Shown one piece after another: positions 1 through 44,977 of a DNA stretch of 64,000 nt (its first letter is position 1; each line of letters begins with the position of its first letter). Made by a program: the position numbers and the translations under genes. The stretch comes from [Actinomadura] parvosata subsp. kistnae (lineage in GTDB: Bacteria > Actinomycetota > Actinomycetes > Streptosporangiales > Streptosporangiaceae), in NCBI RefSeq assembly GCF_900323885.1, contig NZ_OOHJ01000018.1:930001-994000 (forward strand). The letters are read 5' to 3'. The notes beneath the pieces were generated by a model. That model was not told the origin of the DNA and did not search any database. It saw only the letters and a list, made by a program, of their open reading frames with translations.

Positions 1-1
1 G

Positions 2-808
2 TTCAAGGCGGCCGACCCGAAGCGCAAGGTCGAGGTGTTCAACGTGCCGGGCGCCGGCGGCACGATCGGGCTGGCGCAGCTGGCCGGCGAGAAGGGCAAC
101 GGCAACCTGCTGATGACGATGGGCCTGGTCATGGTGGGCGCCATCGAGCAGAACAAGTCGAAGGTCACGCTCGCCGAGACCACGCCCATCGCCAAGCTGA
201 CCGAGGAGTACGAGCTGGTCGTGGTGCCGGCGCAGTCCCCGTACAAGTCGCTGGCCGACCTGGTGGCGGCCTGGAAGGCCGACCCGGCGAAGGTGTCGAT
301 CTCGGGCGGCTCGGCGGGCGGCACCGACCACATCGTGGCCGGGCTGATGGCCAAGGCCGCCGGCGTCGACCCCAAGCGGGTCAACTACATCGCCCACTCG
401 GGCGGCGGCGAGGCGCTGAACGAGCTGCTCGGCAACAAGGTCAGCGTGGGCATCTCGGGCGTGGCCGAGTTCGCGGAGCACGTGAAGTCGGGCAAGCTGC
501 GCGCCCTGGGCGTCACCTCCGCCGAGCGGGTGCCCGGCCTCGACGCCCCCACCCTCAAGGAGGGCGGCCTGGACGTCGAGCTGGCCAACTGGCGCGGCTT
601 CGTCGCCCCCGCCGGCCTCTCGGAGGCCGACAAGAAGGCGCTGACGGACGCGGTCACCAAGATGCACGACTCCCAGCCGTGGAAGGACGCCGTGACCAAG
701 AACGGCTGGATCGACTCCTTCCAGACCGGGCAGCAGTTCGCCGACTTCCTCGGCGCCGAGCAGACCCGGGTCAAGGGCATCATCGCCGAGATGGGGCTCG
801 TCTCCTGA
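2..808 (+). CDS. tctC: Tripartite tricarboxylate transporter substrate-binding protein TctC (5' partial)
   Basis: Extracytoplasmic solute-binding component of a TTT-family carboxylate importer. The frame is open from base 2, so the signal peptide and N-terminus lie outside the window; the first visible GTG is internal. Visible family features are a [12 protein letters not shown] segment, an [11 protein letters not shown] region and a C-terminal helical part. About 268 residues remain of a typical 300-330. The stop TGA overlaps the ATG of tctB (ATGA), and tctA follows, giving the classic C-B-A order. The actual ligand (citrate or another dicarboxylate) cannot be read from sequence. A lipoprotein anchor is expected from the family but is not visible here. 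Confidence 0.93.
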
Positions 809-34786: not shown

Positions 34787-36790
34787 TCATCCCCCGGAAT
34801 TCCCCCCTAGCTGGTCGAGTTGCTCCGTCACTGGTTCGACGTTCAGCGGAGTCCATACGCCCCCCCTTGGATTGTCCCCGAACGTGCCGTAAGCGAGGAT
34901 CAGCGAGAGCGCGGCACCCGCCGCGAGAACTCCCGCCATCACCATCGCCGCTGTTCTCGAGGGTACGAGGGATGCGAGCGTTCTGCGCATCTGTTTGCCG
35001 GGGCCTTCGACTCCGGGGCCCGCGCAGACCGTCCACAGCGCGATCGCCGCGCCCCAGGCCAGGGCATTGGCGGAGTTCATCCCGGCCACCACGGTGAGCA
35101 GCAGCGTCACCGGGAGCCCCAGGATCAGCGCGTAGAGCACGAGGGCCAGCGTGATGCCGGCCGACTTGGCCAGCGCCGCCGGGTAGGCGAACACCCTGAC
35201 CACGTCGAGCGCCGCCGCGCCGGCCGCCCTGCGGGCGGCGAGCTGGGGCTGGGCCAGGTCGGCGGCGCGCAGCAGGATCGCGATCGGCAGCGCCACGACC
35301 GACACCAGCACGGGCGCGAGCACGGCGGCCACGATCAGCAGGACCAGCAGCATGGCACTGGCCACGCCGTAGGCCCGGGAGCGCTGCAGCGGCTTGCCCG
35401 GCTGCGCGCCCGGAACGTACGGCTCCCGCTTGGTCAGCCGGTCGGGCTGCGGCGGCGGGAACTGCGGCGGGATGTAGGGCGGCGGCTGCACCGGGATGGG
35501 GTTGGGCCGCCCGTAGTCGGGGGCCTGCGGGCCGGACTGCGGGCCGGACTGCGGGCCCGAGTTCATCCGGAGGCCGGCGGCCGAGTCGGGGCGTACCCGC
35601 CTGGTGGGCACGTCGGTCTCGCCCGGCGGGACGGCGGGGCCGTTCCCGGTGGCCGGCGCGACCGGCACGGACGGCGCGGCGGGCGCCGCGGGCCCGGCCG
35701 AGGCGGCGGGCGGCGGCTGCGGCGGGTAGACGCCGGCCTCGCGCTGGATCTGCCGCAGCTCCTCCGGCGACACCCTGCGGGTCGGCCACGGGTCGGGCTG
35801 GTTGGGCAGCAGCGAGACGTACTTCTGGTCTTGGGGCTGCTGCGGCGGCACCGGCTGGTCGTGGCCTTCGAGCAGCCGCTTGGGCGTCACCGGCGGCGTC
35901 GAGATCTCGTAGGACGGCCGCTCGGTCACCTTCGGCGGCGGCGCGACCGCGTCGGGCCTGGGCACCGTGGAGATCTCGTCGGGCGAGGACGGCTGCGCCG
36001 ACTTCGGCAGCATGCGGGCGAGCTGCTCGGCCAGCTCGGCCGCCTTGGGCCGCTTGGCCGGGTTGCGCTGGAAGGCGGCCTTGAGCAGCGGCTGCAGCTC
36101 GGCCGGGGCAGCGCTGATGTCGGCCTTGCCCGCGGTGATGTTGTAGAAGATCATCTCCAGCGTGCCCTTGCCGAAGGGCGGCTGGCCCGTGCCCGCATAG
36201 AGCAGCGTGCCGGCCCACGCGTGGATGTCGACCTCCGGCCCCGCCTCCTGGCCCTCGATGATCTCGGGCGCCAGGTAGCCGGGCGTGCCGATGAACATGC
36301 CCGTCTGCGTCAGCCGCGTCGCGTCGACCGCCTGCGCGATGCCGAAGTCGATCAGCACCGGCTCGCCGTCGAGGATCAGCACGTTGCCCGGCTTGAGGTC
36401 GCGGTGGATCACGCCCACCGAGTGCACCACGGCCAGCGCCGCGGCCACCCCGTGCGCGACCCGCAGCAGCGCCGGCAGGTCGAGCGGCCCGTCGTTCTTG
36501 ACGATCTCGTCGAGCGGCGGACCGGCCACGTAACGCGTGACGATGTAGGGACGATGACCGGTGACGTCGGCGTCGAGCACCTCGGCGATGTACTTGCTGC
36601 GCACCCGGCGCATGGTCTCGACCTCGCGCGAAAGCCGGCGCCTGGCGACCTCGTCACCGGCGACCTCTCCACGCAGGACCTTGATCGCCACCTGCCGCCC
36701 CTGAGGGTCGACAGCGAGGTGGACAACGCCCATCCCGCCTTCACCGAGCCGCCTGAGCAGCCGGTAAGGGCCTAGTCGGTCATCGTTCAT
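34787..36790 (-). CDS. Serine/threonine protein kinase with C-terminal membrane domain
   Basis: 667 residues. Kinase domain (~6-265) with LGEGGMGVV, VAIKVLRG, HRDLKPGN, DFGIAQ and GYLAPEI, all intact. A long Pro/Ala linker includes a short SGPQ triplet repeat, followed by several C-terminal membrane segments. First gene of the array. TATGGT (minus strand 36806-36801) lies ten bases before the ATG, so the leader would be only a few bases. Signal and substrates unknown. Confidence 0.93.
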   Translation of the reverse strand: MNDDRLGPYRLLRRLGEGGMGVVHLAVDPQGRQVAIKVLRGEVAGDEVARRRLSREVETMRRVRSKYIAEVLDADVTGHRPYIVTRYVAGPPLDEIVKNDGPLDLPALLRVAHGVAAALAVVHSVGVIHRDLKPGNVLILDGEPVLIDFGIAQAVDATRLTQTGMFIGTPGYLAPEIIEGQEAGPEVDIHAWAGTLLYAGTGQPPFGKGTLEMIFYNITAGKADISAAPAELQPLLKAAFQRNPAKRPKAAELAEQLARMLPKSAQPSSPDEISTVPRPDAVAPPPKVTERPSYEISTPPVTPKRLLEGHDQPVPPQQPQDQKYVSLLPNQPDPWPTRRVSPEELRQIQREAGVYPPQPPPAASAGPAAPAAPSVPVAPATGNGPAVPPGETDVPTRRVRPDSAAGLRMNSGPQSGPQSGPQAPDYGRPNPIPVQPPPYIPPQFPPPQPDRLTKREPYVPGAQPGKPLQRSRAYGVASAMLLVLLIVAAVLAPVLVSVVALPIAILLRAADLAQPQLAARRAAGAAALDVVRVFAYPAALAKSAGITLALVLYALILGLPVTLLLTVVAGMNSANALAWGAAIALWTVCAGPGVEGPGKQMRRTLASLVPSRTAAMVMAGVLAAGAALSLILAYGTFGDNPRGGVWTPLNVEPVTEQLDQLGGNSGG

Positions 36791-36800
36791 GGCATGAAGC

Positions 36801-36806
36801 ACCATA
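36801..36806 (-). promoter_or_regulatory. Probable -10 element of the kinase operon
   Basis: TATGGT on the minus strand, ten bases upstream of the ATG at 36790. It fits the actinobacterial TANNNT consensus; no convincing -35 is visible. Confidence 0.45.
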
Positions 36807-36921: not shown

Positions 36922-37434
36922 TCAGCCGGCCAGCGAGAGGACCTCGGCCCTCTTCAGCCCGGCCAGCGCGGCGCCGGAAACGGCCAGCTTCGACCTGCGC
37001 ACGCCGCTCCCGATCACCACTCTCGCGTGCTCCGCCACGTGCGTGTCGACCAGGATCGGCCACTCCTCGGGCAGGCCGAGGGGCGTGATGCCGCCGTACT
37101 CCATGCCGGTCAGCTCGACCGCCTCCGCCATCGGGGCGAAGCTGGCCTTGCGGGCGTCGAGGTGCCTGCGCACCACGCCGTTCACGTCGACCCGCATCGT
37201 CGCGAGCACCATGCAGGCGGCGTAACGCGTCTCGCCGCCCCGCTTGGCCGCCACGACCACGCAGTTGGCCGACTCGTCGAGGGTCACGCCGTACTTCTCG
37301 CAGAACGCGGCCGTGTCGGCGAGATCGGGATCGATCTCGGCCACCTCGGCGCCCTCCACGTCACGCACGGCACGGGCCACCGGATCGGCCAGCAGGTCGG
37401 TACGTTCGGCGGCGGGCACCCATTGCAACGTCAT
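36922..37434 (-). CDS. YbaK/EbsC-family aminoacyl-tRNA deacylase-like protein
   Basis: 170 residues. The family core is seen in ANCVVVAAKRGGETRYAACMVLATMRVDVNGVVRRHL (with a lysine in the expected substrate pocket) and GMEYGGITPLGLPEEWPILVD. Homologues hydrolyse mischarged tRNA such as Cys-tRNA(Pro) or act on other aminoacyl-tRNAs. It lies 61 bp after the amine oxidase on the same strand and could be the last gene of that operon. Confidence 0.88.
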   Translation of the reverse strand: MTLQWVPAAERTDLLADPVARAVRDVEGAEVAEIDPDLADTAAFCEKYGVTLDESANCVVVAAKRGGETRYAACMVLATMRVDVNGVVRRHLDARKASFAPMAEAVELTGMEYGGITPLGLPEEWPILVDTHVAEHARVVIGSGVRRSKLAVSGAALAGLKRAEVLSLAG

Positions 37435-37495: not shown

Positions 37496-39055
37496 TCACG
37501 GAGACTGCAGGACTCTCCTGTGCAGTTGCGTGACGGCGCCACGGGCGGACTCCATGGCGCCCGCCTGCCACGCGATCAGGTGGGTGAGCCAGTCGCCCGC
37601 GAAGTAGACCCTTCCGGCGGGGCGTTGCAGAAGAGTGAAGGACGAATCAAAGGACGGCCAGCGCATCCAGCCGCCCTGGATGTGCTCCTGGCGTTCCCAG
37701 GCGATGGAGACGCTGGACAGCAGGTTCTGGCGGTACTTCTCGCCGTGGATCTTCTTGCCCTGGGTGAGCGCCCTGCGCCTCCTGTCCTCAGGGGTGAGCG
37801 CGCCGTAGAGCTCGGCGACGCGCTCGGTGTTGTAGTAGCCGACGAGCAGGCCGCGCTCGGCGTGGTAGTCGTGCGAGGGGTACCAGATGTGGGTGATGTC
37901 GAGGTCGGTCTCGGTGACGCCGCCGTAGATCCGGTCCTCCATCTCCCACCAGCGCCGGCCGTACTCCAGGCCGATCTTGCCGGCGGCGATCGGGACGGGC
38001 GTGGCGAGCGCGGCGGTGACGCGGGCGCCGAGGTTGTGCGGGATCTTGGCGAGGAGGTGGGGCGGGAGGGTGGCGATGCAGTAGTCGGCCTTGATCGTGC
38101 CTCCGGTGTAGGCGACCTCGACGCCGTCGTCCAGAGTCGTGATCTTGGTGACCTTGGCGTTCGTCCTGATGCGCTCCTGGCCGACGGCCTGCTGGAGCTT
38201 GGTGACGATGGCGTCCATGCCGCCGACGGGCTGGAACATGGGGGTGGCCTGCTCGTAGCCGAAGTCGTTGGTGATGGCGCGGCCGGTGCCGGCGGCGAGG
38301 ACCTGGTGGAGGGTGCCGGGGGCGGGCATGGGGGTCCCGCCGTCGAGGGCGGGGAACTTGGTGAAGCCGCGGCGTTCGGTGCCCTCGTAGTCGAGCTTGG
38401 GGCCCAGGTCGCCGAAGCGTCTGAGGAACTCCAGCAGGCGTTCGCGGTCGTCCTTGGTGAGGGTTTTGTCCAGGGCGCCGACGTTCGTGGCCTTGGCCAG
38501 CAGCTCGGCGACGTATCCGTACATGTCGGCTCTGGCCGTGCGGGCTCTGACCGTCTGGCCGTTCGTATGAACGTAGGCCGAGGCGTTGTTGTTGATGAAC
38601 GTCTCGATGGGGATGCCCAGCTCGCGGCAGTAGTCGAGGGTCACCATCCACTGCGCGATGCGGCCGGGGCCGGCGTTGAAGTAGACGCCCGCGCCGAACC
38701 GCACGTCCTGCGCCGGGCCGTTCAGCTCCGTCAGGCGGTCGCCGCCGCGCAGCGTCAGGTTCCGGCCGCCGGCCTTCTGCCGGGCTTCGAGCAGCGTGCA
38801 GTCGTAGCCGGCCTTGCCCAGCTCGTACGCGGCCGTCAGCCCCGCCACGCCCGCGCCCAGGATCACCACCTTGGCCGAGGCCCGGCCGCTCAGCGTGAAG
38901 TCGCCCTGGCGCGGCGGGGTGTACTTCTTGTCCTGCCCGGTGGGGGCCAGGCCGAGCGCGCCCATGGCGGCGTACATGGCGCCCGCGCCCCCGGCCGCCC
39001 CGATCCCGACGAGCAGCCCCCGCCGGGTCAGCGCGGCGCCCTTCCCGTCACCCAT
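37496..39055 (-). CDS. Tat-exported flavin monoamine oxidase-family protein
   Basis: 519 residues. The N-terminus carries a Tat signal (LTRRGLLVGIGAAGG, twin arginines at ~11-12), then an ADP-binding motif VVILGAGVAGLTAAYELGKAGYDCTLLEAR with a KAGGR flavin contact. The C-terminal FAD motif is VYFAGDWLTHLIAWQAGAMESAR. Relatives oxidise amines, L-amino acids or tryptophan with H2O2 release. Start ATG overlaps the M55 gene stop by eight bases. Last of four overlapping genes; substrate unknown but plausibly an amino acid released by the M55 enzyme. Confidence 0.88.
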   Translation of the reverse strand: MGDGKGAALTRRGLLVGIGAAGGAGAMYAAMGALGLAPTGQDKKYTPPRQGDFTLSGRASAKVVILGAGVAGLTAAYELGKAGYDCTLLEARQKAGGRNLTLRGGDRLTELNGPAQDVRFGAGVYFNAGPGRIAQWMVTLDYCRELGIPIETFINNNASAYVHTNGQTVRARTARADMYGYVAELLAKATNVGALDKTLTKDDRERLLEFLRRFGDLGPKLDYEGTERRGFTKFPALDGGTPMPAPGTLHQVLAAGTGRAITNDFGYEQATPMFQPVGGMDAIVTKLQQAVGQERIRTNAKVTKITTLDDGVEVAYTGGTIKADYCIATLPPHLLAKIPHNLGARVTAALATPVPIAAGKIGLEYGRRWWEMEDRIYGGVTETDLDITHIWYPSHDYHAERGLLVGYYNTERVAELYGALTPEDRRRRALTQGKKIHGEKYRQNLLSSVSIAWERQEHIQGGWMRWPSFDSSFTLLQRPAGRVYFAGDWLTHLIAWQAGAMESARGAVTQLHRRVLQSP

Positions 39056-39890
39056 AGGGGCCGCTGCCGCAGGCGACCTGCCCCGCGATGCTCGCGAACA
39101 GCCCGAACAGGGCCATGATCTGGGTGAAGTCGTCGGTGCTGAACTCCGTGTGCCGCGCGCCCGCCGCCTTCACGCCCGGGATCAGCGACACGGCCGCGGC
39201 GATGGCGGTGGAGTTCCACTCCACCCCGAGCGTGTACGGCGCCTCCACGACGTACGGCGTGAAGTCGTTCAACCGGCCCAACGCGCGGGCCATGGCCTCA
39301 CGGGTGCGGGACTGGGCGACGACCGGCGGCAGCAGCTCGGCCGAGAACTTGTCGATCCCCTTCTTCACCGCGACCGTCTCGACGTCGCCGAGCAGTTCCC
39401 GGGCCTCCTCGCCCACGGCCTCGTCCCCGGTCACCAGCACCACCGGCACCCCGTGGAACCCCGCGCAGGCCGCGACCAGCCTCGTCTCGCCGCACAGCTC
39501 GCCGTTCAGGTAGACGTTCTGGATCTCCTTGCCCATCCACGTGTGGTTGAGCACCCCGTGCGGGACGCCCGCGCGGGCGTGGTAGCCCACGAAACCCGCC
39601 GCCTGGAATGAGCCGTCCAGCCCGTGCGCCATCCGCTGCGCCTTGCCCGGGCCCCTGATCAGGCTCGCCCGGGGGTCCAGCAGGTCGATGCGGAGATTCT
39701 TCGTCGAGCCGTGGGCGTCGTTGACCAGCACCCCGCTCGCCCCGCCGGCGAACGCGCCCTCGATCGCGGCGTTCGCGTCGGCCGTCATCAGCTCGCAGCC
39801 GCGCTCGTACCCGCGCTTGCCCGCGTGCATCTCCTCCGGGTCCGTCAGACCCGTCACGCCCTCCATGTCCACCGACAGATAGACCTTCAC
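39048..39890 (-). CDS. M55-family (DppA-like) D-aminopeptidase
   Basis: 280 residues. Zinc ligands of the DppA family fall at conserved positions: Asp8 and Glu10 (SVDMEGV), His60 (VNDAHGS) and His104 (GYHAR), with a likely catalytic His116 in LNHTWMG. DppA-type enzymes cleave D-Ala-containing dipeptides and act in the cytosol; no signal peptide is seen. GTG start overlaps the PP-loop gene stop (GTGA). Coupled to a PP-loop ATPase rather than the usual dipeptide transporter, which is unusual. Confidence 0.9.
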   Translation of the reverse strand: MKVYLSVDMEGVTGLTDPEEMHAGKRGYERGCELMTADANAAIEGAFAGGASGVLVNDAHGSTKNLRIDLLDPRASLIRGPGKAQRMAHGLDGSFQAAGFVGYHARAGVPHGVLNHTWMGKEIQNVYLNGELCGETRLVAACAGFHGVPVVLVTGDEAVGEEARELLGDVETVAVKKGIDKFSAELLPPVVAQSRTREAMARALGRLNDFTPYVVEAPYTLGVEWNSTAIAAAVSLIPGVKAAGARHTEFSTDDFTQIMALFGLFASIAGQVACGSGPYG

Positions 39891-41098
39891 GCGCTCCCCC
39901 ACGACTCGACCTTGCGCACCTCGGACTCCGTCATCAGCCCCACGTTCGCCTCGACGAACGCCGCCGCCTCCGCCCGCCACCGCTCCGGGATCTCCTCCAG
40001 GGCCGGCGGGTAGCAGTGGTCCAGCCAGCTCGTCGACTCCTCCGAGACGTCGAAGTAGTCGAGCGCCGGGGCGAACAACGTGTTCTCGATGCCCGGCACG
40101 CGCGCCAGCCCGTACTGGATCATCTCCTGACCCCCGTACGGCGGCTTCTGCAGGTACTTGCGGGCCACGGAGCGGTCGGCGGTGATCGGCGTGTCCAGCG
40201 GGCGGCGCTCCACGGCGGCCTGGATCAGCTCCTTGTACAGGCACTTGCCGCAGTTGCGGCACGGGCCGTCCGTGCCGCGCAGGCACCAGCGGACCTGCTC
40301 CTTGAGCGGCGAGCTCAGCGCCAGGCGCATGGTGACCGCCTCGCTCACGCCGCCCACGGGCAGCACGATGTGCACGCCCGCCGCTGCGAACAGCCGGCCC
40401 CACCGGCCGTGCGGCGCCCACATCGGGTTGTCGGGGGTGAACCGCCACAGGTAACGCCCGCCGCCCAGCCAGCGGGAGCCCATCTCGTACCCGAAGCCCA
40501 GGCCGCCCAGGTCGAGCCGGTCGGCCAGCAGCAGCGCGCCGGCGGCCACCGCGTGGTGCTCCGGGTAGCCGGGGCGCGGCTCGGCCAGCGTGTACTCCAG
40601 GTCGGAGGTGACCACGCTCAGCTCGCGGCCGGTCTTCGCGGCCAGCTTGGCCAGGACGTCCGAGCGGTAGTGCGGCCAACGGTTCGGGACGCGCGGGTGC
40701 GCCACCCGGCGGAAGTGCACGAACGGCGCCTCAGAGAAGATCGTGGCCGCCGCCACCGAGTCCGCGCCGCCGCTGTAGGAGATCGCCAGTCTCGTGCCCG
40801 GCCGGCGCGGCTCCGCGCCCACCGGGCCCGCCTCGACGCCCCAGCCGTCGTGCAGCGCCTGCGCCAGCTCCGCCGACACGGCCCGGTCGAACGTGATCCG
40901 CCGCCTCGTCCACGGCGCCACGATCGTCCAGGCGGCCACGGCGAACAGGTCGGGGTGCGCGTCGTCCGGGACACCGCCGATTGAGCACGAGTTGATGGCC
41001 AGCTTGATCGGGTACTCGTCGGAGGCCCGGCCGGTGATCTCGTCCTCCGCGTCCAGGCGGAAGGTCAGGTGCCCGCCGGCGCTCCAGGTCACGCGCAC
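39887..41098 (-). CDS. PP-loop ATP pyrophosphatase-like protein with QueC-type zinc motif
   Basis: 403 residues. N-type PP-loop SYSGGADS (107-114) after an ~100-residue N-terminal domain of unknown fold. Four cysteines at 272, 280, 283 and 286 (spacing x7-x2-x2) resemble the zinc site of QueC. PP-loop enzymes adenylate a carbonyl or carboxylate before amination, thiolation or ligation. GTG 41098 has AGGAG five bases upstream; GTG 41092 is an alternative with a GTGA overlap. No queuosine genes are near, so the substrate must be different. Confidence 0.75.
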   Translation of the reverse strand: MRVTWSAGGHLTFRLDAEDEITGRASDEYPIKLAINSCSIGGVPDDAHPDLFAVAAWTIVAPWTRRRITFDRAVSAELAQALHDGWGVEAGPVGAEPRRPGTRLAISYSGGADSVAAATIFSEAPFVHFRRVAHPRVPNRWPHYRSDVLAKLAAKTGRELSVVTSDLEYTLAEPRPGYPEHHAVAAGALLLADRLDLGGLGFGYEMGSRWLGGGRYLWRFTPDNPMWAPHGRWGRLFAAAGVHIVLPVGGVSEAVTMRLALSSPLKEQVRWCLRGTDGPCRNCGKCLYKELIQAAVERRPLDTPITADRSVARKYLQKPPYGGQEMIQYGLARVPGIENTLFAPALDYFDVSEESTSWLDHCYPPALEEIPERWRAEAAAFVEANVGLMTESEVRKVESWGSA

Positions 41099-41460
41099 GG
41101 CTGCTCCTCGGACCTGCCCGGCTCGTCGAGCTTCGCGCGGAGCTCGTCGATGGCCTGCCAGACCAGCACCTCGTTCTGCAGCACGCCGTCCAGGGCCTTG
41201 GCCGTCTCCTGCGCGAGCCGGTGGGCATCGTCCGCCTTCGCCTTCAGCGCCGGATCCGGCTTGGGCGCCGCCGCCGCCGGGCGGGCGTTACGCAGCCGCT
41301 CGACCTCGCTCTGCAAGGTCGCCATCTCCCGCCTCAAGGTCTGGACCTCCCAGAGCGCGTCCCGGATGTCCTGACGATGGTCGGCGATGGAGATGTACCG
41401 GGAGTCGAACCAGGTGCGCACGGCCCTTCTGAGCCGGGCAGGGACGGGGACGCGCATCAT
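41089..41460 (-). CDS. Small coiled-coil protein, first gene of the PP-loop/M55/oxidase operon
   Basis: 123 residues. A basic N-terminus (RVPVPARLRRAVRTWFDSRYISIADH) precedes a heptad-rich region (IRDALWEVQTLRREMATLQSEVERL). An Ala/Pro/Lys linker and a second helical part (AHRLAQETAKALDGVLQNEVLVWQAIDELRAKLDE) follow. No family recognised. TATGGT lies eight bases before the ATG (leaderless). Its end overlaps the PP-loop gene start, so expression is coupled. Confidence 0.7.
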   Translation of the reverse strand: MMRVPVPARLRRAVRTWFDSRYISIADHRQDIRDALWEVQTLRREMATLQSEVERLRNARPAAAAPKPDPALKAKADDAHRLAQETAKALDGVLQNEVLVWQAIDELRAKLDEPGRSEEQPCA

Positions 41461-41468
41461 GAAACGCC

Positions 41469-41474
41469 ACCATA
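41469..41474 (-). promoter_or_regulatory. Leaderless promoter of the four-gene operon
   Basis: Minus-strand TATGGT with eight bases to the ATG at 41460, matching TANNNT and leaderless spacing. The only promoter candidate seen for the operon 41460-37496. Confidence 0.6.
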
Positions 41475-41615
41475 GTGGCAAACCCCCATCGGAACGGACG
41501 ACCCTGACCGAATGCGTTGACTTCTCGTTGCACCGGGCACTCCAGACCGATTCGTTAGGCCCGATTCGCCCAATGCGCGGGCACGCCGCGTACATGGCTG
41601 CTAACGTTCCGCGAC

Positions 41616-42443
41616 ATGCCCTCCTCCGTGCATGAGGCGTTGAACGCCTTGTTTCGGAACCGGCCCTCCCTCGCCGTCGACCTGCTCTGCGACGTGTTCG
41701 ACATCGATCTGCCCTCCGACACCCTCGTCGAGGTGGCCCCGCACGGCCCCGCCACCCTGGCGCCGGCCACCTGGCGCCAGGCCGCGCACGGCGTCATCGT
41801 GGAGCTGCAGCACACCGTGTCCGAGGAGGACCGGCAGAGCTGGGCGCGCCGCAGCGCCGCCCTCTGGCTGCTGCTCAGGCGCCCCGTGCTCGTGCTCGTC
41901 CTCGCCCCCGACGCCGGCATCTGCGACTGGGCGGCCCAGCCCGTCGTCACCAGCCTGCCCGGGTACGTCCTGCACCCGCTCGTCATCGGCCCCGACCAGG
42001 TGCCCCCCATCTCCGACCCCGCGCAGGCCGCCGAATGCCTGGAACTCGCCGTCCTGTCCGTCCTGTCCCACGGGGACGACGAGGCCGTCGTCGGCACGTT
42101 CCTGGACGCGCTGGCCAAAGCGGAGGAAAGCCACGGGGCCCGCTACTACGAGTACGCCTACCGCCTGGCGTCCACCGACGTCCGGCGCGTCCTGGAGGAG
42201 ACCATGGCGTCCACCACGTGGCCGGTCTACAGCCCGTTCGCCCGCGAGCACTACACCAGGGGCCGCTTCGCCGGCCTCTCGGAAGGCAAGGCCCGGGCCG
42301 TCCTGGCGGTGCTGCGGGCGCGCGGCGTCACCATCACGGACGACGCGCTGACGGCCATCACGTCATGCGCCGACCAGGAACAACTGGACGAGTGGGCCCA
42401 CCGCGCCGCCACCGCCCTCACCATCGACGAACTCTTCGTCTAA
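41616..42443 (+). CDS. Rpn-like PD-(D/E)XK nuclease/putative transposase-related protein
   Basis: 275 residues. The N-terminus MPSSVHEALNALFRNRPSLAVDLL and the strand GVIVELQHTVSEEDRQSWARRSAALWLLLRRPVLVLVLAPD recall the multi-copy actinobacterial family related to Rpn recombination-promoting nucleases. VELQ would supply the E-x-Q of the nuclease core and an earlier Asp the metal ligand. The C-terminal part is helical. TAACGT eight bases before the ATG suggests leaderless transcription. The fold assignment is inference. Confidence 0.5.
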   Translation: MPSSVHEALNALFRNRPSLAVDLLCDVFDIDLPSDTLVEVAPHGPATLAPATWRQAAHGVIVELQHTVSEEDRQSWARRSAALWLLLRRPVLVLVLAPDAGICDWAAQPVVTSLPGYVLHPLVIGPDQVPPISDPAQAAECLELAVLSVLSHGDDEAVVGTFLDALAKAEESHGARYYEYAYRLASTDVRRVLEETMASTTWPVYSPFAREHYTRGRFAGLSEGKARAVLAVLRARGVTITDDALTAITSCADQEQLDEWAHRAATALTIDELFV

Positions 42444-44587: not shown

Positions 44588-44713
44588 ACCGGGAGCCCCC
44601 GCATGCGATCACAAGCGCCGGCCTCGGCGATCGGCCCTGAGGCCGAACGCCGTCCTTGAGCACGGTCTCGGCCGCTGCCAGCCTGGGGCTATGCACCTCC
44701 GAGGGTGGGCCGT

Positions 44714-44811
<98 letters not shown>

Positions 44812-44977
44812 CGAGCAGCATCGGACCTCGGACCTCGGCCGTCGGCTCCGGCGGGGTGAGCACCATCGGGCCTGGGCCATCTTGCTCCGGTCGAGTGAGC
44901 ACCATCGGACCTGAGTCGAGAACTGCGGCCTGCACCCTTGGCTGCGGCTTTGGGCAGGCAGCCTGGGATCGGGCGGG

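What the first reader, a model, noticed from the sequence alone, without database searches (positions are those of the whole stretch)
37496..41460. Four-gene overlapping operon: coiled-coil protein, QueC-like PP-loop ATPase, M55 aminopeptidase, Tat-exported amine oxidase
All four genes overlap (10, 4 and 8 bp) behind one leaderless promoter. A PP-loop enzyme with a C-x7-C-x2-C-x2-C zinc motif suggests activation of a carboxylate or peptide. A DppA-type enzyme would process D-residue peptides, and an exported flavin oxidase could act on released amines. I know no described pathway combining these. It may be a small peptide or amino-acid modification system; the coiled-coil protein could be a scaffold or substrate carrier. 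The YbaK-like gene 61 bp downstream may belong too.
Basis: partly seen in the sequence, partly recalled or inferred. Interest (0 to 1): 0.72.

Follow-up and report, generated by a model that had tools for sequence, protein, structure and literature searches.

The report
QueC-fold enzyme with coiled-coil partner
A conserved actinobacterial operon holds a never-studied relative of the queuosine enzyme QueC, whose distant relatives mostly sit in gene clusters that build cell-surface sugars; its one firm partner here is a small coiled-coil protein, while the two amino-acid enzymes beside it come and go.

Summary
In detail: four minus-strand genes overlap by 10, 4 and 8 bp behind a conserved leaderless promoter, in a block kept across much of Streptosporangiaceae. 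The PP-loop protein is DUF6395 (PF19932); its predicted fold is QueC-type, nearest QatC, Cap9 and QueC, with an invariant PP-loop and four invariant cysteines. M55 is DppA-like. The oxidase resembles the Rhodococcus opacus L-amino-acid oxidase and has a Tat motif.

One obligate four-enzyme pathway is not supported: M55 and the oxidase are lost separately while PP and the coiled coil stay, and both survive where PP is lost. The coiled coil is the firm partner: full length in 102 of 103 loci with PP, cut back or gone where PP is lost (two events at most).

Elsewhere DUF6395 mostly lies with glycosyltransferases (9 of 12 genomes, 0.68 expected), in four loci in one frame with one. No glycosyltransferase was found near 67 core loci, so the glycan link here rests on relatives.

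Best reading, inferred: an ATP-dependent carboxylate- or amide-activating enzyme for envelope glycans or precursors, held by the coiled coil. Substrate unknown. Deazaguanine chemistry is unlikely: 12 of 19 congeners lack a QueD-type match.

The parts
41461..41482 (-). Leaderless promoter block TTTGCCACTATGGTGGCGTTTC: -10-like TATGGT inside an inverted repeat GCCAC-TATG-GTGGC, directly before the coiled-coil ATG
   Evidence: TAT(G/C)GT at this place in 31 of 31 core loci that passed the start pattern (of 67), fuller block in 20 of 31; consensus sigma-70 scan finds nothing
41089..41460 (-). CC: small coiled-coil protein; N-terminal basic helix with D-x-R-Y, C-terminal motif ETAxALDxVLQNEVLxWQAID
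   Evidence: no Pfam family above cut-off; full in 102 of 103 PP-bearing core loci. Helix and coiled-coil nature read from the sequence
39887..41098 (-). PP: DUF6395 (PF19932) PP-loop protein with QueC-type predicted fold, four-cysteine motif, N- and C-terminal extensions
39048..39890 (-). M55 D-aminopeptidase, DppA-like
   Evidence: PF04951 314 bits; 1hi9 DppA 165 bits; D8, E10, H60, H104 in 110 of 110 aligned rows (that these are metal ligands is recalled)
37496..39055 (-). L-amino-acid-oxidase-like flavoprotein, Rhodococcus opacus type, with Tat motif
   Evidence: 2jae 425 bits (its host species is recalled); PF01593; twin-arginine motif before the FAD motif in 83 of 89 distinct core homologues by pattern
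36922..37434 (-). YbaK-like aminoacyl-tRNA editing domain protein; conserved next gene
   Evidence: PF04073 78 bits; TIGR00011 43.7 bits, below cut-off 153; synteny
34787..36805 (-). Serine/threonine-kinase-like gene, conserved next gene of the block (not claimed as part of the module)
   Evidence: Synteny; kinase identity read from the sequence, not scanned

Best explanation
The operon is a vertically kept Streptosporangiaceae block that contains one tight two-gene module, CC plus PP, and dispensable neighbours. PP is a QueC-fold PP-loop protein of the uncharacterised family DUF6395. It most likely binds ATP, adenylates a carboxylate (or amide) on a cell-envelope glycan, sugar or glycan-linked precursor, and completes an amide- or amidine-type bond. 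CC most likely holds PP at the membrane or a larger assembly through its basic N-terminal helix and coiled coil, and binds PP through its C-terminal helix. M55 and the exported oxidase are amino-acid/peptide enzymes that share the transcript without being needed for PP. Shown by computation: operon, predicted fold, motifs, CC-PP co-retention, glycan context of most distant relatives. Inferred: substrate class, chemistry, CC-PP contact, membrane holding.
For: Fold: model pLDDT 92.9, pTM 0.91; best PDB matches QatC Z 13.0 (267 aligned, rmsd 4.3), Cap9 Z 10.6, QueC Z 10.4 and 9.9. Motifs: S[GSA]GxDS and four cysteines in 38 of 38. 5 of 38 weakly match PF06508, best E 0.012. Glycan context: a PF00535 glycosyltransferase inside the fetched locus in 9 of 12 genomes with distant relatives, 0.68 expected, P about 7e-10; counting one of each closely similar pair (L084/L085, L086/L087, L093/L100), 7 of 9, 0.51 expected, P about 4e-8. 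UDP-sugar dehydrogenase in 5 of 12, 0.15 expected. DUF6395 and a glycosyltransferase in one open frame in L100 and L086, L087, L093. Successive sister branches of the core clade are Acrocarpospora, Halomonas and Moranbacteria copies, each in a glycosyltransferase locus, branch values 97-99. Module: CC full in 102 of 103 core loci with PP; cut to its N-terminal half in 6 of 6 loci of two genera without PP there; gone in L068, where PP is a remnant; the Acrocarpospora copy in a glycosyltransferase cluster has its own overlapping full CC. M55 and oxidase lost with PP and CC kept. Not deazaguanine-dependent: PTPS/QueD in 7 of 19 same-genus genomes, full QueC (E<1e-40) in 2 of 19, PP in all 19.
Against: None of 67 core loci has a glycosyltransferase within about 9 kb by a home-made profile, so the glycan role here rests on relatives; 3 of 12 distant loci lack PF00535 too (L084, L085, L089). 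Foldseek alone gave no PDB match at E<=0.001. The N-terminal domain folded alone gave only weak matches (best Z 5.1), QatC not among the rows listed. The two genera with cut-back CC are sisters (branch 84), and one deletion across the CC end and PP would give the same picture; L068 is the only other event. A second PP copy in one genome (L055, same as L102) has neither CC nor glycosyltransferase nearby, and the distant relatives other than L091 have no CC by the profile. The root of the tree is a midpoint, for drawing only, with long branches flagged. No substrate is known.
Confidence: 0.5

Rival explanations
1. CC-PP works like QatB-QatC or CdnD-Cap9: PP modifies its small protein partner CC, as a housekeeping protein-modification pair.
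For: Closest fold is QatC, then Cap9; tight CC-PP pairing with overlapping genes and co-loss. QatC forms a complex with QatB and its N- and C-terminal extensions are needed for defence (PMC12424860, Results part 1 and Discussion read).
Against: No MG near the start in 95 distinct CC regions, whereas QatB and CdnD have an N-terminal glycine motif. PADLOC matches nothing in PP at E<=1. QatC cysteine variant C-x19-CGxCxxRR in 0 of 38. CDG precursor genes patchy. Distant PP relatives other than L091 have no CC by the profile.
Confidence: 0.12
2. One reading: one pathway of all four enzymes that makes or modifies a small peptide or amino acid.
For: Overlapping genes, one transcript likely; 82 of 117 core loci (not de-duplicated) carry all of CC, PP, M55, oxidase and YbaK.
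Against: M55 and oxidase lost separately with PP and CC kept; M55-oxidase kept without PP. The oxidase has a Tat motif while M55 opens MKVYLSVDMEG without a visible signal. M55 and oxidase not adjacent in the 8 genomes outside the family listed with both.
Confidence: 0.12
3. PP is a WbpG-like sugar amidotransferase that makes acetamidino sugars.
For: WbpG is a QueC-superfamily enzyme of O-antigen synthesis (PMC13329287 section 8; the acetamidino product is recalled); DUF6395 shares the PP-loop, a cysteine motif and the glycan context.
Against: No NCBIfam amidotransferase match for PP at E<=1; no glutaminase among the neighbour proteins scanned (30 proteins, not exhaustive).
Confidence: 0.12
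4. The locus is only frozen synteny: each gene has its own unrelated role and PP has no partner.
For: The block also carries kinase-like genes and an enoyl-CoA hydratase that look separate; genes are gained and lost singly.
Against: CC-PP co-retention in the core loci, and the same overlapping pair inside an unrelated glycosyltransferase locus of Acrocarpospora.
Confidence: 0.14

Closest known systems
QatC of qatABCD anti-phage defence (PDB 9y01, 9y02)
   Same: QueC core with N- and C-terminal extensions, about 400 aa, four cysteines, neighbouring gene for a small helical partner; best fold match (QatC features)
   Different: No PADLOC match; QatC cysteine spacing absent; partner without an MG start; no QatA or QatD in the operon; a core-genome or glycan-locus gene
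QueC, 7-cyano-7-deazaguanine synthase (PF06508)
   Same: PP-loop, C-x7..9-CxxCxxC, core fold (Z 10.4)
   Different: Motifs YxQxHxxE, VPxRN and YPDC in 0 of 38; window protein without PF06508 match; genus mates without a QueD match keep PP
Cap9 of type IV CBASS
   Same: QueC fold (Z 10.6)
   Different: About 185 aa, without extensions; no CD-NTase in this operon
WbpG / N-acetyl-sugar amidotransferases
   Same: QueC-superfamily PP-loop enzyme of surface glycans
   Different: Different cysteine pattern; no NCBIfam match; no glutaminase among scanned neighbours
L-amino-acid oxidase 2jae and DppA 1hi9
   Same: Oxidase and M55 gene products are clear relatives
   Different: Adjacent to each other only in this family among the matches listed

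Membership tests
DUF6395 (PF19932) | Match over Pfam gathering score | tested here: met
   Window protein 225 bits against 25; 38 of 38 aligned relatives match at E<=1
QueC (PF06508) | Match over Pfam gathering score | tested here: not met
   Window protein no match at E<=1; 5 of 38 relatives weak, best E 0.012
QueC (PF06508) | SGGxDS PP-loop and C-x8-CxxCxxC-type cysteines | tested here: met
   S[GSA]GxDS 38 of 38 (SGGxDS 31 of 38, window included), cysteines 38 of 38 with spacing 7 to 9
QueC (PF06508) | YxQxHxxE, VPxRN, YPDC motifs (from PMC13329287) | tested here: not met
   0 of 38 each
QueC (PF06508) | QueC core fold | tested here: met
   Predicted model: 3bl5 Z 10.4, 175 aligned, rmsd 3.2; 2pg3 Z 9.9; Foldseek alone gives no E<=0.001 in PDB
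QatC | PADLOC profile | tested here: not met
   0 families for PP at E<=1
QatC | C-x19-CGxCxxRR cysteine variant | tested here: not met
   0 of 38
QatC | QatC-type N-terminal extension | tested here: inconclusive
   Whole-model alignment spans 1..344; domain alone best Z 5.1 to other folds, QatC not among rows listed
QatC | Partner with N-terminal glycine motif; QatA and QatD neighbours | tested here: not met
   0 of 95 CC regions with MG near the start; operon neighbours are M55, oxidase, YbaK
Cap9 / type IV CBASS | CD-NTase next to it | tested here: not met
   None among the eight genes of the locus scanned
WbpG-type sugar amidotransferase | NCBIfam model match | tested here: not met
   Only an unrelated weak match for PP
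M55 DppA-like aminopeptidase | PF04951 and conserved acidic/histidine residues | tested here: met
   314 bits; D8, E10, H60, H104 in 110 of 110. The stricter equivalog NF058634 is not met: 207 bits against 430
L-amino-acid oxidase | Closest solved relative is an LAAO; activity | tested here: inconclusive
   2jae E 3e-126; activity not testable here
YbaK Cys-tRNA(Pro) deacylase | TIGR00011 cut-off | tested here: not met
   43.7 bits against 153; PF04073 domain met

The most novel reading that the evidence does not exclude
DUF6395 is a further kind of QueC-fold activating enzyme, found in bacteria, archaeal assemblies and viral contigs, which builds amide-type links on surface glycans; in Streptosporangiaceae it became a core, membrane-held CC-PP complex that installs an unknown amide or conjugate on an envelope precursor, possibly with CC itself as acceptor.
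Probability: 0.3. Interest if true: 0.75.

Novelty: new variant of a known kind. Interest (0 to 1): 0.5.

Why it matters
QueC-fold enzymes were recently shown to modify proteins as well as nucleobases (abstract). A QueC-fold family tied to surface glycans, whose names DUF6395 and PF19932 occur in no paper of the library searched, points to an unknown ATP-dependent envelope modification. The Streptosporangiaceae form has one strong match in each of 36 same-genus genomes searched and a defined partner, so a two-gene deletion and a pull-down can test it directly.

Tried and rejected
Deazaguanine chemistry for the core PP: rejected as general, since 12 of 19 same-genus genomes have no PTPS/QueD match and 17 of 19 no full QueC match; uptake of a precursor is not excluded.

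Sequence route to solved structures: profile searches with 8 and with 38 sequences gave no match better than E 0.12; the second list does include QueC 2pg3 (E 0.75), TilS (0.81) and Cap9 (9). Foldseek against PDB gave none at E<=0.001; against viral models the best named hits are phage 7-cyano-7-deazaguanine synthases.

N-terminal domain alone: weak matches to integrase and reverse-transcriptase domains, Z 4 to 5, Foldseek E about 1; no conclusion drawn, and QatC's absence from that list proves nothing.

Defence reading: no PADLOC match for CC, PP, M55, YbaK or the upstream gene; the oxidase matches only a flavin desaturase-type model. Dropped.

CC ending -PCA as a functional tail: it is forced by the overlap with the PP start codons, so dropped.

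M55-oxidase as a general pair: not seen outside the family; only the matches listed at E<=1e-40 and E<=1e-80 were compared.

Counting notes: 'in the locus' was read by eye from coordinates and typed into; contigs were matched to loci by position and frame length; the list was capped. L084 (another glycosyltransferase family), L085 and L089 count as misses. The home-made profile finds 11 of 16 distant loci, but six of those (L083 through its copy L063, L086, L088, L090, L092, L100) lent its seeds. One search used by-eye counts over 50 bits. A control of UDP-sugar dehydrogenase at other glycosyltransferase loci was only glanced at and is not used. L093 and L100 hold nearly the same cluster under different taxon labels, so one label may be wrong.

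Row handling: one search used 144 loci, many genomes twice under two sources (103 PP core loci, 89 distinct PP). L184 was cut before its PP and CC and falsely counts as PP-less; it was left out of the CC count, but inflates the PP changes (4). That tree used 64 of 103 rows (every odd one, every second regular one); 20 of 61 inner branches are drawn open. In one search six of 89 oxidases failed my pattern; all 16 rows printed, these included, show an RR-x-LL motif.
Full report
What is there. The window lies in a 13.6 Mb genome. On the minus strand four genes overlap by 10, 4 and 8 bp: a coiled-coil gene (CC, 41460-41089), a PP-loop gene (PP, 41098-39887), an M55 gene (39890-39048) and an oxidase gene (39055-37496); a YbaK-like gene follows after 61 bp. 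PP matches only PF19932, DUF6395 (225 bits); M55 matches PF04951, the oxidase PF01593, the YbaK-like gene PF04073; CC has no family above cut-off. The closest solved relatives are the L-amino-acid oxidase 2jae (425 bits) and DppA 1hi9 (165 bits). A twin-arginine motif precedes the FAD motif in 83 of 89 distinct core oxidases by pattern; all 16 rows printed, failures included, show it.

Promoter. Of 67 core loci 31 passed a start pattern; 31 of 31 have TAT(G/C)GT 8 nt before the first ATG and 20 of 31 the fuller block TTTGCCA(C/G)TAT(G/C)GTGGC. In the window the block is 41461-41482. It fits a leaderless start; the consensus scan found no promoter.

Spread. PP is in 36 of 36 same-genus genomes and 0 of 23 others of that call, in 112 of 297 family genomes (two of these, G383 and G444, are short pieces) and, by PF19932, in 1 of 296 phylum genomes, the window's own. 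A scan of named genomes found 105 relatives, 80 kept: 70 Streptosporangiaceae by title and 10 others (Arthrobacter 2, Glycomyces 2, two archaeal, Rhodobacteraceae, Moranbacteria, Halomonas, a gammaproteobacterial assembly); 4 viral contigs carry it. Both Arthrobacter loci, the archaeal assembly UBA486 and one viral contig have two copies.

Fold. The model of PP has pLDDT 92.9 and pTM 0.91. The second-look aligner ranks QatC first (Z 13.0, 267 residues, rmsd 4.3), then Cap9 (10.6) and QueC (10.4, 9.9), with TilS, TtuA and others at 8 to 9. Foldseek alone was weak. The PP-loop, E253 and the four cysteines are invariant in 38 of 38 apart from an S/G/A exchange in the loop, while the QueC motifs and the QatC cysteine variant given in PMC13329287 (sections 7 and 8 read) are absent in 38 of 38. 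So the fold is QueC-type and the substrate pocket probably not QueC's. The N-terminal domain alone gave no clear match.

Where relatives live. In 9 of 12 genomes with a distant relative a PF00535 glycosyltransferase lies in the fetched locus, 0.68 expected from genome density; with one of each similar pair, 7 of 9 against 0.51. The misses are L084, L085 and L089. A UDP-sugar dehydrogenase lies in 5 of 12, 0.15 expected. Of 30 neighbour proteins scanned, matches include glycosyltransferases of several families, UDP-GlcNAc 2-epimerase, UDP-sugar dehydrogenases, DUF6270, a sulfotransferase, an ABC-2 transporter, polysaccharide deacetylase, arabinofuranosyltransferase-like and mannosyltransferase-like proteins. 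One open frame holds DUF6395 and a glycosyltransferase in L100 and in L086, L087 and L093. On the tree the core copies are nested inside Acrocarpospora, Halomonas and Moranbacteria copies, each in such a locus, with branch values 97 to 99; the root is a midpoint and several long branches are flagged. Against this, none of 67 core loci has a glycosyltransferase nearby by my own profile.

What belongs together. Full CC accompanies PP in 102 of 103 core loci; the exception, L068, has only a 65-residue PP match and no CC. In two sister genera without PP at this locus, CC is cut to its N-terminal half in 6 of 6 loci, and that half is still conserved. The Acrocarpospora copy in a glycosyltransferase locus has its own overlapping full CC. 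M55 and the oxidase are lost separately while CC and PP stay: 3 and 5 changes on the tree. Both, with YbaK, persist without PP. Outside the family, the 8 genomes listed with both never have them side by side. The PP losses with CC damage are two events at most, and one may be a single deletion.

Chemistry. A CDG-based reaction would need the precursor; PTPS/QueD is in 7 of 19 same-genus genomes and full QueC in 2 of 19, PP in all 19. No CC region has MG near its start (0 of 95), unlike the glycine motifs of QatB and CdnD described in PMC12424860 (Results part 1 and Discussion read; abstract only of PMC11996544). I therefore favour activation of a carboxylate or amide on an envelope glycan or precursor over protein deazaguanylation. 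This step is inference.

In print. DUF6395 and PF19932: 0 papers each; DUF6270: 0; 'QueC-like' or 'peptidase M55': 16 papers, listing of 15 seen; a QueC-glycan term set: 70 papers, 12 listed; 'deazaguanylation': 4 papers, 3 listed. The library holds openly licensed papers only.

Noticed in passing
41466-41479: The -10-like TATGGT lies in an inverted repeat GCCAC-TATG-GTGGC, kept in many of the loci printed, which may be an operator.
   Followed up: partly
L190 (window genome C4:839448-840071) with a PTPS match at C4:838958-839392: A PTPS/QueD-like gene next to a full QueC gene: a patchy 7-deazaguanine cluster in the window's own genome, also seen in genus mate G013.
   Followed up: no
L179 (window genome C26:676097-677665): A second, 60% identical oxidase with a twin-arginine motif stands elsewhere without the other operon genes; similar ones in related genera.
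   Followed up: no
41616-42443: Divergent 275-residue gene directly upstream of CC without any Pfam match; found again in 1 of 40 loci (L071).
   Followed up: no
L084, L085, L100, L166: Two DUF6395 genes in one locus, in Arthrobacter, an archaeal assembly and a viral contig, suggesting paired or successive reactions.
   Followed up: no
L084:6774-7514, L100:10035-10754: DUF6270, another family named in no paper of the library, near DUF6395 in unrelated genomes.
   Followed up: no
L163, L164, L165, L166: DUF6395 on viral contigs; in L164 beside a glycosyltransferase and a methyltransferase-like gene.
   Followed up: partly
L093, L100: Nearly the same cluster in assemblies labelled gammaproteobacterial and archaeal, so one label may be a binning error.
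   Followed up: no
44609-44935: Low-complexity PEPEPE run in a minus-strand frame near the flanking genes.
   Followed up: no
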